64,000 nt of DNA from Burkholderiales bacterium (GTDB taxonomy: Bacteria > Pseudomonadota > Gammaproteobacteria > Burkholderiales > Burkholderiaceae_C), in the NCBI GenBank assembly GCA_028872015.1, contig JAGWLO010000005.1:17187-81186 (forward strand). The letters run 5' to 3'. Every line of letters starts with the position of its first letter. The first letter of the stretch is position 1. Positions 48,378 to 54,979 of this stretch are shown in pieces. A program made the position numbers and the translations under genes. The notes below the pieces were generated by a model. That model was not told where the DNA came from. It saw only the letters and a list, made by a program, of their open reading frames with translations, and searched no databases.

Positions 48378-49100
48378 ATGGCCCTGAGCACCCAACCGGG
48401 CGCGCCGCTTTCGGCGGTGCCGGCGCCGCAGCGGCCCGCGCCGCGCCCGCCTTCGCGCGCCAACCGCGCGCTGCTGCATCCCGCCGCCAAGCCGCTGCTG
48501 TTCGCGACCGCGATGGGGCCCTTCGCGGCCCTGGTCTACGGTGCCTTCGCCGATGCCCTAGGCCCCAACCCGGCCGAGGCCCTGATCCACCGCACTGGCG
48601 ACTGGACGCTGCGACTGCTGTGCCTGACGCTGGCGGTCACGCCGCTGCGCCAGCTCAGCGGCTGGCACGCGCTGGCGCGGCTGCGCCGCATGCTGGGCCT
48701 GTTCACCGCCTTCTACGGCACGCTGCACTTCCTGTCCTACGCCTGGCTGGACAAGGGCTTCGTGCTGGCCGACATCGTGCGCGACGTGGCCAAGCGGCCC
48801 TTCATCCTGGTGGGCACGGCCGCGCTGCTGCTGATGCTGCCGCTGGCCGCGACCTCGTTCAACCGTGCCATCAAGGCCCTGGGCGCCGCGCGCTGGCAGG
48901 CGCTGCACCGGCTGGTCTACGCGGTGGCGCTGCTCGGCCTGCTGCACTTCTTCTGGATGCGCGCGGCCAAGAACCACTTCAGCGACTGGTCGGTCTACGC
49001 CGCCGTGATGGCCTTGCTGCTGGGCTGGAGGCTGTGGCGGCGCTTGCGCCCGGCCGCGCACCCGGCCCCGCGCCCGGCCGCCCCCGTTCAGGTGCGCTGA
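48378..49100 (+). CDS. msrQ: Haem-binding membrane subunit MsrQ
   Basis: MsrQ (YedZ) is the b-haem membrane protein that passes electrons from the respiratory chain to MsrP. The 240-aa protein has about six hydrophobic segments of the ferric-reductase-like fold. Haem-ligand histidines occur in [40 protein letters not shown] and the early region. The ATG at 48378 is chosen 11 nt after msrP. A ~30-residue Pro/Ala-rich N-terminal extension precedes the first helix. Its 3' end overlaps the convergent uvrA stop by 13 nt. Confidence 0.92.
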
Positions 49101-52100: not shown

Positions 52101-54979
52101 TGCAGGCCAGTGGTGGGCTCGTCGAACAGGAACAGCGTGCCGCGATGTTTGCGGATCCGGGTTTCCCGGTCCGCAAACGCGCCCCCCTGGGGGGCCGCGA
52201 ACGCAGTGAGCTTGGGGGCGGCATCCGCCAGGAAGCCGGCCAGCTTCAGGCGCTGCGCCTCGCCGCCCGAGAGCGTGGGCACCGGCTGGCCCAGGCGCAC
52301 GTAGTCCAGGCCGACGTCGACGATGGGCTGCAGGCGCGCCACCACCTCGCGGTCGTTCTGGAACCAGTGCGCGGCCTCGGCCACGGTGAGGTCGAGCACG
52401 TCGGCGATGGACAGCCGCATCGGGCCGCGCACGATCTTCACGTCCAGGATCTCGGGCCGGTAGCGGCGGCCGTCGCAGTCGGGGCAACGCAGGTAGACGT
52501 CGCTCAAGAACTGCATCTCCACATGCTCGAAGCCCGAGCCGCCGCAGGTGGGGCAGCGGCCGTCGCCGGCGTTGAAGCTGAAAGTGCCGGCGCTGTAGCT
52601 GCGCTCGCGCGCCAGCGGCAGATCGGCGAAGAGCCGGCGCAGCTCGTCGAAGGCGCCGACATAGCTGGCCGGGTTGCTGCGCGCGGTCTTGCCGATCGGG
52701 CTCTGGTCGACGAACACGGCGTCGGCCAGGTGGTCGGCCCCCAGCAGCCGGTCGTGCGCGCCGGGCGTCTCGGTGGCCTTGCCGAAGTGGCGCGCCAGCG
52801 CCGGATAGAGCACGTCCTGCACCAGCGTGCTCTTGCCCGAGCCGCTGACGCCGGTGACCACCACCAGGCGCTGCAGCGGCAGCGCCACCGTCAGGCCCTG
52901 CAGGTTGTGCTCGCGCGCGCCCTCCAGCACCAGCTTGGGCGTGGCCTCGGCCACCAGCCGCCGAAAGCCCTGATGCACCTGCTTGCGCCCGCCGAGGTAG
53001 GCGCCGGTCAGGGTGTCAGCCTGCGTGGCGGCCTCGGGCGTGCCGTCGAAGACGATGCGGCCGCCGCGCTCGCCCGGCCCGGGGCCCAGGTCGATCAGGC
53101 GGTCGGCGGCCAGCATCACGGCCGGGTCGTGCTCGACCACGACCAGCGTGTTGCCCGCGTCGCGCAGCCGGTGCATGGCCTGCACGATGCGGCCCATGTC
53201 GCGCGGGTGCAGGCCGATGCTGGGCTCGTCGAGCACGAACATCGTGTTGACCAGGCTGGTGCCCAGGGCCGTGGTGAGGTTGATGCGCTGCACCTCGCCG
53301 CCGCTGAGCGTGCGGCTCTGGCGATCCAGCGTGAGGTAGCCCAGGCCGACGTCGCAGAGGTATTTCAGCCGCGTGCGCACCTCGCCCAGCAGCAGCTTCA
53401 GCGCGTCGTCGAGCACGGTGCTCGGCAGCGCCAGGCCGCGCCGGGCCGCCCCAAGCGGCCGGCTCCCCCCCGGGGGGGCGACGCCGGAGGCGTCTTGGGC
53501 GTCAGTTTCGCCATCGAAGAAGCGCTTCAGCCGCTCGATCGAGAGCTGCATCAGGTCGGGCAGGTTCAGGCCCGGCAGCGCCTCGAGCTGTTCCTGGCTC
53601 CACGACACCCCCACCGGCATGAAACGTCGATAGGCAGCCGCACCCTCCAGCGAACGCCGCGAATCCGGCGCTGCCGGCTCGCCGGCGTTGCCCCCTCGGG
53701 GGGCAGCGCCGAGGGCGCTTCGGGGCGGGGCCATCACCGCATCGGCGTCGGCCTTCGAGCCCAGGCGCCACAGCAGGGCCTCGAGCTTCAGCCGCGCGCC
53801 CCCGCAGGCCGTGCAGGGCGTGTAGCTGCGGTACTTCGACAAGAGCACGCGGATGTGCATCTTGTAGGCCTTGCTCTCGAGGTACTCGAAGAAGCGGCGC
53901 ACGCCGTACCACTGCTTGTTCCAGTTGCCGCTCCAGTGCGGCGAGCCCTCGATGACCCAGGCGCGCTGGGCGTCGGTGAGCTGGGCCCAGGCCGTGTCGC
54001 GCGGGATGCCGGCCTCGCCGGCGTACTTGACCAGGTCGTCCTGGCAGTCCTTCCAGGCCGGCGTCTGCATCGGCTTGATGGCGCCGTTGCGCAGGGTCTT
54101 GCGCGCGTCGGGGATCACGAGCCCCAGGTCGACCCCGATGACGCGGCCGAATCCGCGGCAGGTGTCGCAGGCGCCATAGGCGCTGTTGAAGCTGAACATC
54201 GCCGGCTGCGGGTCGGCGTAGCGCAGGTCGCTCTCGGGGCAGTGCAGCCCGGTGCTGTAGCGCCAGAGCGCGGCGCCCTCGCCTTCGCCCGCATGCACGT
54301 CGAGCCGGCCGCTGCCGCGCTTGAGCGCGAGCTCGATGGCCTCCAGCACGCGCACCCGCTCGGCGCCGGCCAGGCGCAGGCGGTCGGCCACGACGTCGAG
54401 GATCTTCCTCGCGCCGTCGACCCGCTCGCCCTGCACGCGCGTGAACCCGGCCGCCGACAGCCATTGCGCCTGCTGCTCGGCGGTCACGTCGGCCGGCAGC
54501 TCGGCCGGGAAGGTGAACACCAGCCGCGGGTCGCCCGCGGCCGCGGCCCGCCGGACCAGGTCGGCGTAGATCGTCTGGGGCGTGTCGTGCCGCACCGGCA
54601 GCGCGGTCTGCCGGTCGAACAGCTGCGCGGCGCGCGCGAACAGCAGCTTGAGGTGGTCGTTCAGCTCGGTCATCGTGCCGACCGTGCTGCGGCTGGTGCG
54701 CACCGGGTTGGTCTGGTCGATGGCGATGGCCGGCGGCACGCCGTCCACGCGGTCCACCGCGGGCCGGTCCATGCGGTCCAGGAACTGGCGCGCGTAGGCG
54801 CTGAAGGTCTCGACGTAGCGCCGCTGCCCTTCGGCGTACAGGGTGTCGAAGACCAGGCTGCTCTTGCCCGAGCCGCTGGGGCCGGTGACCACCGTCAGCT
54901 CGCCGGTGTGGATGTCGAGGTCGAGGTTCTTGAGGTTGTGCTGCCGCGCACCGCGGATTCGGATGACACCGGACGACAT
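49088..54979 (-). CDS. Double-length UvrA: tandem in-frame fusion with four ABC ATPase modules
   Basis: Normal UvrA is ~940 aa with two ABC modules. This single uninterrupted ORF is 1963 aa and holds two complete UvrA-like halves (~1-1060 and ~1065-1963). Walker A motifs lie at ~33 (GPSGSGKSS), ~708, ~1096 and ~1638 (GVSGSGKST). Signatures lie at ~556 ([11 protein letters not shown]), ~902 ([11 protein letters not shown]), ~1486 ([11 protein letters not shown]) and ~1839 ([11 protein letters not shown]). Each half keeps Cys-pair zinc modules (CPTCGGSGF...[18 protein letters not shown]...CDLCHGARF) and a UvrB-binding-like insert. UvrA works as a dimer, so this may be a covalent dimer. UvrA-like proteins of this size are annotated in some other proteobacteria, as far as I recall. 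Three repeat-like inserts lie in the first half. I see no LexA box upstream. Confidence 0.93.
52143..52225. repeat. GC-palindromic repeat-like segment A inside uvrA
   Basis: The segment contains a near-perfect hairpin GTTTGCGGA...TCCGCAAAC and a CCCCCCTGGGGGG palindrome (52182-52194), followed by a GCAGTGAGCTTGGGGGCGG tail. In the uvrA frame it encodes ~28 extra residues (including [19 protein letters not shown]) between a signature motif and the conserved [12 protein letters not shown], where other UvrA proteins have a short linker. It resembles REP-type intergenic elements. Confidence 0.55.
53445..53500. repeat. GC-palindromic repeat-like segment B inside uvrA
   Basis: Three consecutive inverted repeats: GCCGC-CCCAA-GCGGC (53445-53459), CCCCCCCGGGGGGG (53465-53478) and GACGCC-GGA-GGCGTC (53480-53494), followed by TTGGGC. 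In frame it encodes an insert containing [19 protein letters not shown] at ~residue 495-515. It shares with segment C the order of a poly-C/poly-G palindrome and then an xxCGCC/GGCGxx hairpin. Confidence 0.6.
53650..53728. repeat. GC-palindromic repeat-like segment C inside uvrA
   Basis: CCCCCTCGGGGGG (53691-53703) followed by the perfect hairpin AGCGCC-GAG-GGCGCT (53705-53719) and TCGGGGCGGGGC. In frame it encodes [20 protein letters not shown] at ~residue 417-436. This is a second copy of the two-hairpin layout seen in segment B, only ~200 bp away. Confidence 0.6.

What the first reader, a model, noticed from the sequence alone, without database searches (positions are those of the whole stretch)
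49088..54979. A 1963-aa UvrA made of two complete UvrA halves in one chain
Seen: one stop-free frame with four Walker A motifs, four LSGGE signatures and paired zinc modules in each half. Known: UvrA is ~940 aa, has two ABC modules and acts as a homodimer in nucleotide excision repair. Inference: this protein is a covalent pseudo-dimer whose halves have diverged (about 60 residues of extra linker in half 1, different UvrB-binding-like inserts). It may have a specialised damage or drug-resistance role next to a normal uvrA elsewhere in the genome. Proteins of this length are annotated as UvrA in some proteobacteria, but their function is, as far as I know, little studied.
Basis: partly seen in the sequence, partly recalled or inferred. 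Interest (0 to 1): 0.75.

Follow-up and report, generated by a model that had tools for sequence, protein, structure and literature searches.

The report
Two-in-one UvrA with unequal halves
A DNA-repair protein normally built from two identical copies of UvrA is here a single chain of two old, unequal UvrA copies, of which apparently only one can take hold of the next repair protein, and in many relatives it is the copy wired to the DNA-damage alarm.

Summary
Window 49088-54979 (-) encodes one 1963-aa protein with four intact ABC ATPase sites. The genome also holds a canonical uvrA and uvrB. Double-length UvrA is not unique: chlamydial UvrA is 1786 aa, and C. metallidurans carries an annotated 'uvrA2'. 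I found about 95 relatives, nearly all in Burkholderiales and normally beside a canonical uvrA.

(1) The halves are not two complete UvrAs. Half 1 keeps the UvrB/Mfd contact residues and the DNA-contacting insertion domain. Half 2 keeps the UvrB-binding fold but has lost both.
(2) Half 1 groups with a stand-alone second UvrA of Bacteroidales (support 100), so this is not a recent internal duplication.
(3) In Burkholderia, Paraburkholderia and Cupriavidus the double gene carries a perfect LexA box; the canonical uvrA of that family does not (0 of 30).
(4) One Burkholderiaceae genome appears to keep only the double.
(5) The 'extra linker' in half 1 is two lineage-specific inserts containing GC palindromes.

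Best reading: a single-chain, asymmetric UvrA pseudo-dimer acting in excision repair through one UvrB site. The biochemistry is untested. A drug-resistance role is not supported. New variant of a known kind.

The parts
49088..54979 (-). Double-length uvrA gene, 1963 aa
   Evidence: NF001503 1888 bits and TIGR00630 1854 bits, four stretches each
51779..54979 (-). Half 1 (aa 1-1067): ABC pair; 'business' half with UvrB contact residues and insertion domain
   Evidence: AF2 model pLDDT 72.3, best PDB match 2r6f
54248..54628 (-). Half 1 UvrB-binding domain (about aa 118-244): first part diverged; E. coli R206/R216 kept in 95/95 and E222 in 94/95 doubles
   Evidence: Pfam PF17760 only profile 70-106 at 24.1 bits; block pLDDT about 83-93 for aa 131-250
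53822..54130 (-). Half 1 insertion domain (about aa 284-386), short type with [30 protein letters not shown]
   Evidence: PF17755 33.6 bits; 111-117 aa between Zn2 Cys pairs in 94 doubles
53630..53731 (-). Insert 1 (aa 417-450), contains a GC palindrome; absent from C15 homologue
53438..53512 (-). Insert 2 (aa 490-514), contains a GC palindrome; absent from C15 homologue
52145..52216 (-). Insert 3 (aa 922-945), contains a repeat GGGGGGCCGCGAACGCAGTGAGCTTGGGGG
51773..51892 (-). Inter-half linker (about aa 1030-1069); 14-65 residues across 81 measurable doubles, 44 here
49091..51778 (-). Half 2 (aa 1068-1963): ABC pair with intact Walker/signature motifs and DNA-binding arginines, no insertion domain, UvrB contacts lost
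   Evidence: AF2 pLDDT 77.5, best PDB match 3uwx
50990..51430 (-). Half 2 UvrB-binding domain (about aa 1184-1330): fold and RKGxY motif kept, R206->D, R216->E/A, E222->A/D/S in most doubles
   Evidence: PF17760 81.5 bits
50765..50887 (-). Half 2 short variable stretch (aa 1365-1405) where the insertion domain should be
   Evidence: 28-47 aa between Zn2 Cys pairs in 95 doubles

Best explanation
It is an asymmetric single-chain UvrA pseudo-dimer that works in nucleotide excision repair beside the ordinary UvrA. The two halves fold back on each other as the two protomers of a UvrA dimer do, giving one DNA groove and four ATPase sites (inferred). Half 1 senses damage with the only insertion domain and recruits UvrB, or Mfd, through the only intact contact surface. 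Half 2 supplies ATPase sites, zinc modules and DNA-clamping arginines, but neither of those two functions (residue and domain patterns shown, roles inferred). It would therefore load one UvrB in a fixed orientation. In Burkholderia, Paraburkholderia and Cupriavidus it is probably the SOS-induced UvrA (LexA box shown, induction not measured). In the window's own genus that box is absent and regulation is unknown.
For: All four ATPase sites are intact: Walker A lysines 95/95 in each half; Q-loop and H-loop residues invariant across 22 doubles. UvrB contact residues R216 and E222 (published in PMC3025350) are kept in half 1 (95/95, 94/95) and lost in half 2. PF17755 insertion domain found in half 1 only; Zn2 gap 111-117 aa in half 1 against 28-47 aa in half 2. 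Half 1's UvrB-binding region is modelled with confidence and both halves match UvrA structures best. Perfect LexA box upstream of the double in Burkholderia 4/4, Paraburkholderia 16/16, Cupriavidus 4/6, Pandoraea 1/1 (0.36 expected over all 133 loci) and in 10/16 further loci of that family, against 0/30 canonical uvrA of the family. The E. coli uvrA control shows its known-type box with one mismatch. UvrB present in the own genome. One Burkholderiaceae genome (G369) has the double and UvrB but no detectable canonical UvrA; a transposase-like frame sits where canonical uvrA would start.
Against: No biochemistry or expression data. The window gene itself has no LexA box, and the motif CTGTWNNWWNNWACAG does not occur in its genome. 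Half 1 lost Zn1 and E. coli R730, so its DNA contacts may also differ. G369 is 97% complete and its contig ends at the canonical uvrA site, so canonical uvrA could be unassembled.
Confidence: 0.55

Rival explanations
1. UvrB-independent protector of the class II UvrA kind (Ecm16/DrrC-like), which removes DNA-bound drugs or marks lesions without excision repair.
For: It coexists with canonical UvrA. In E. coli UvrA and in Ecm16 the insertion domain sets specificity, and half 1's insertion domain is of an unusual type.
Against: UvrB/Mfd contact residues are kept in half 1, whereas Ecm16 lacks the whole UvrB-binding domain. In the trees class II proteins form a separate clade. No resistance or biosynthetic context in the B. 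multivorans locus; one Mycetohabitans locus does lie next to an adenylation-domain gene.
Confidence: 0.12
2. A transcription-coupled repair specialist: half 1 is used mainly by Mfd rather than UvrB.
For: The same E. coli surface (R216/E222) is the UvrB/Mfd interaction surface, and loss of the insertion domain hurts transcription-coupled repair less than global repair (PMC3025350). Half 2 has lost that domain.
Against: One insertion domain is still kept and strongly conserved, which argues for damage sensing.
Confidence: 0.12
3. Simple spare UvrA with no special mechanism; the asymmetry is neutral decay made tolerable by fusion.
For: Loss of a duplicated feature in one half is expected once both halves are tethered; Zn1 is lost in half 1 of the window clade only, not in other families.
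Against: Contact loss and domain loss both fall in the same half, across divergent families, and the LexA box sits on the double rather than the canonical gene.
Confidence: 0.15
4. The fused halves do not pair with each other; two chains dimerise through like halves, making a four-half particle.
For: Canonical UvrA is a homodimer, and the shortest measured linker is only 14 residues (L047).
Against: The median linker of 45 residues can span a protomer, and unlike halves differ in a complementary way (inference).
Confidence: 0.15

Closest known systems
Canonical class I UvrA (TIGR00630 / NF001503; E. coli, B. stearothermophilus 2R6F)
   Same: ABC architecture, zinc modules 2 and 3, DNA-binding residues, 44% (half 1) and 48% (half 2) identity to the own canonical UvrA
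   Different: Two UvrAs in one chain; insertion domain and UvrB contacts present in half 1 only; paralogous to the canonical copy present in the same genome
Chlamydial double-length UvrA (CT333, 1786 aa; model NF001885)
   Same: Double-length single-chain UvrA (PMC6686042)
   Different: Scores 1054 bits against a cut-off of 3054; the four pieces tested all match the model's first half best, including both half 2 pieces; coexists with a canonical UvrA. Whether the fusion is shared or independent is unresolved
Cupriavidus metallidurans CH34 uvrA2 (Rmet_4549)
   Same: Named a second excinuclease gene on the second replicon (PMC2864759); the double found there is full-length and about 71% identical
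   Different: CH34 gene has a LexA box, the window gene has not. That Rmet_4549 is the locus read here is inferred from the replicon, because the record carries no gene table
Bacteroidales second UvrA (L199, L202, L203, L205)
   Same: Groups with half 1 at support 100; shares the short insertion-domain type and the loss of the Zn1 Cys pair
   Different: Single-length stand-alone gene
Class II UvrA (D. radiodurans UvrA2, Ecm16, DrrC)
   Same: Extra UvrA paralogues beside canonical UvrA
   Different: They lack the UvrB-binding domain and Zn1 and branch apart

Membership tests
UvrA (class I, TIGR00630/NF001503) | Score over curated cut-off | tested here: met
   1854.5 against 729.8 bits; 1888.1 against 1147 bits
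UvrA (class I, TIGR00630/NF001503) | Two ABC modules with intact ATPase motifs per protomer | tested here: met
   four complete sets in one chain
UvrA (class I, TIGR00630/NF001503) | UvrB-binding domain with contact residues R216/E222 | tested here: met
   met in half 1 (95/95, 94/95), not in half 2
UvrA (class I, TIGR00630/NF001503) | Insertion domain in each protomer | tested here: not met
   half 1 yes, half 2 no; so not a plain class I UvrA
UvrA (class I, TIGR00630/NF001503) | UvrB loading and UV repair activity | not testable with these tools
   needs experiment
Class II UvrA (UvrA2/Ecm16) | Absence of the UvrB-binding domain | tested here: not met
   PF17760 in both halves (24.1 and 81.5 bits)
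Chlamydial double UvrA (NF001885) | Score over curated cut-off | tested here: not met
   1053.9 against 3054 bits
Chlamydial double UvrA (NF001885) | Double length in one chain | tested here: met
   1963 aa
Chlamydial double UvrA (NF001885) | Common origin of the fusion | tested here: inconclusive
   half 2 pieces match the model's first half best; no chlamydial sequence could be fetched for a tree
Burkholderiales double UvrA (this report) | Half 1 with short insertion domain and UvrB contacts, half 2 without either, linker 14-65 aa | tested here: met

The most novel reading that the evidence does not exclude
A natural, obligately asymmetric UvrA: one chain equivalent to a UvrA dimer with a single UvrB site and a single insertion domain, built from two old paralogues, which loads one UvrB in a fixed orientation and has taken over the SOS-induced role from canonical UvrA in Burkholderiaceae.
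Probability: 0.35. Interest if true: 0.7.

Novelty: new variant of a known kind. Interest (0 to 1): 0.5.

Why it matters
Whether the damage sensor is UvrA2B2 or UvrA2B1, and how two loaded UvrBs become one in the incision complex, is discussed as unsettled (PMC7835731). A protein that is by its sequence a dimer with one UvrB site makes that question directly testable without engineered heterodimers. It also suggests that in Burkholderia and relatives the SOS-controlled 'uvrA' may be this gene and not the canonical one. A published comparative analysis lists LexA-regulated uvrA as core in beta-proteobacteria without, in the passages I read, distinguishing the two (PMC3323433).

Tried and rejected
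Second double UvrA on C15 as a true paralogue: rejected as most likely a contaminating sister genome, because C15 is syntenic with C83 at 86-92% nucleotide identity over more than 16 kb including flanking genes. My first reading that half 2, not half 1, binds UvrB (from Pfam scores and motif look): overturned by residue mapping. Half 1 and half 2 as a recent internal duplication: not supported, since half 1 groups with the Bacteroidales paralogue; but half 1 + half 2 as sisters is not rejected (p-AU 0.37), and half 1 + half 2 + Bacteroidales together scored 34.5 lnL higher than the free tree, so the deeper order is open. Chance LexA boxes: shuffles give 0.36 expected over 133 loci. A general LexA box in the own genome: none found with CTGTWNNWWNNWACAG. 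Literature searches for double-length UvrA found no dedicated study; subscription reviews are not held, and a class scheme in Goosen and Moolenaar 2008 that may mention such proteins is from memory and unverified.

Full report
1. Observation. The reported ORF is present exactly as described: 49088-54979 on the minus strand, 1963 aa. Four Walker A, four LSGGE, four DEP motifs were counted. NCBIfam calls it UvrA far above cut-off. Comparison with an 88.6%-identical homologue shows mostly third-position changes, so the frame is under purifying selection. The same double frame was read in 95 loci from independent assemblies, including complete replicons. A stop or frameshift between the halves is therefore excluded as an explanation.

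2. Genome context. The own genome (3.80 Mb, 147 contigs, 100% complete, 3.16% contaminated) holds a canonical uvrA on C97 (1392.6 bits) and uvrB on C72. It also holds a second double on C15. C15 is syntenic with the window contig at 86-92% nucleotide identity over more than 16 kb, so I read it as a contig of a sister organism, not as a paralogue.

3. Anatomy. Halves are aa 1-1067 and 1068-1963, 43.6% identical to each other, and 44.0% and 48.0% identical to the own canonical UvrA. Half 1 carries the insertion domain (PF17755) and a partly diverged UvrB-binding domain (PF17760 at 24.1 bits, last third of the profile only). Half 2 carries a full PF17760 (81.5 bits) and no PF17755. The spacing between the two Cys pairs of zinc module 2, which contains the insertion domain, is 111-117 aa in half 1 and 28-47 aa in half 2 across 94-95 doubles. 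On Pfam scores alone half 2 would look like the UvrB binder. Residue mapping says the opposite. E. coli R216 and E222, the published UvrB/Mfd surface (PMC3025350), are R in 95/95 and E in 94/95 half 1s, but mostly E/A/Q and A/D/S in half 2; R206 (contact role from memory) behaves likewise. Half 2 keeps zinc module 1 Cys residues and the E. coli DNA-binding arginines R712, R724, R730 (R722 is R or K). Half 1 has R730 replaced by T or M, and in the window clade has lost zinc module 1, though other families keep it. AlphaFold models gave pLDDT 72.3 and 77.5; the half 1 UvrB-binding region scored about 83-93 per block, and both halves matched UvrA structures first in Foldseek.

4. The 'extra linker'. 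Compared with the C15 homologue the window protein has inserts at aa 417-450, 490-514, 922-945 and 1738-1747. The first three contain the only three CCCCC..GGGGG palindromes on the whole 81-kb contig. One repeat core has three looser relatives elsewhere in the genome (1-3 mismatches) and none in the reversed control. I take them as small palindromic repeat insertions in surface loops. This is an inference from pattern and position. They are not part of the family architecture. A relative (L063) carries a different repetitive insert in the same loop as insert 1.

5. Distribution. In 61 relatives the double was seen in most congeners and about 11 of 24 other families of the order. In 299 Pseudomonadota genomes it was seen in 17: Burkholderiales plus two other gammaproteobacterial families. 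In Burkholderiaceae (41 genomes), 21 have both, 13 canonical only, 6 very reduced genomes neither, and one (G369) the double only. In G369 the double and uvrB are present, no other UvrA fragment is found, and the conserved MFS-ssb neighbourhood of canonical uvrA ends in a transposase-like frame where uvrA would begin, at a contig end. This suggests natural replacement but is not proof.

6. Origin. Each half is one clade with support 100. Half 1 groups with a second, single-length UvrA of Bacteroidales at support 100; these share the short insertion-domain type and zinc module 1 losses. B. finegoldii has both that gene and a canonical uvrA. The order of half 1, half 2 and canonical is unresolved (p-AU 0.37 for half 1 + half 2), and long branches are present. 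Robust conclusion: half 1 belongs to an old paralogue lineage that also exists unfused, so this is not a recent internal duplication.

7. Regulation. Perfect CTGT-N8-ACAG sites lie within 320 bp upstream of the double in Burkholderia 4/4, Paraburkholderia 16/16, Cupriavidus 4/6 and Pandoraea 1/1 (0.36 expected over all 133 loci), and in 10 of 16 additional loci of that family. Canonical uvrA of the family had 0/30 perfect sites and 1/30 with one mismatch. The E. coli uvrA control found its box at one mismatch. The window gene and its genus have none, so SOS control is a statement about relatives, not about this strain.

8. Mechanism. Shown: intact ATPase motifs; unequal distribution of UvrB contacts and insertion domain; LexA box placement in relatives. 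Inferred: intramolecular pairing of the halves, one UvrB per particle, and directional loading. A two-UvrB and a one-UvrB complex of UvrA2 are both in the PDB (9ga4, 9ga3), and the stoichiometry is discussed as unsettled, which makes this protein a natural test case.

9. Comparison. Double-length UvrA as such is known: chlamydial CT333, 1786 aa, with its own NCBI model, which this protein fails (1054 against 3054 bits). In Burkholderiaceae records the gene is annotated simply as uvrA, and as uvrA2 in C. metallidurans. I found no study of its function. It is a new variant of a known kind.

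Noticed in passing
G000 contig C15 (L009, L013, L014) against window 43535-64000: C15 is syntenic with the window contig at 86-92% nucleotide identity and duplicates its gene set, so the assembly probably contains a contig of a sister organism.
   Followed up: yes
window 52145-52216, 53438-53512, 53630-53731: The only three CCCCC..GGGGG palindromes of the 81-kb contig all lie in frame inside this gene, at inserts absent from a close homologue; a relative (L063) has a different repetitive insert in the same loop as insert 1.
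   Followed up: partly
L199:1495-4278, L202:3992-6763, L203, L205: Bacteroidales carry a second single-length UvrA related to half 1, with UvrB contact residues kept and zinc module 1 reduced; in two records it lies beside a family-10 glycosylhydrolase gene. Function unknown to me.
   Followed up: partly
G369 (L279, L286, L289): A 2.6-Mb Burkholderiaceae genome that appears to have lost canonical uvrA and to keep only the double; its contig C14 is a 99.98% copy of part of C12.
   Followed up: partly
canonical uvrA of Burkholderiaceae (L208, L210-L213, L237-L261): No LexA box upstream of canonical uvrA in 30 loci, unlike E. coli; the box is at the double gene instead.
   Followed up: yes
G264, G268, G324, G362, G370, G376: Several Burkholderiaceae carry a third UvrA-like frame (about 890-1116 aa, matching profile 263-924).
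   Followed up: no
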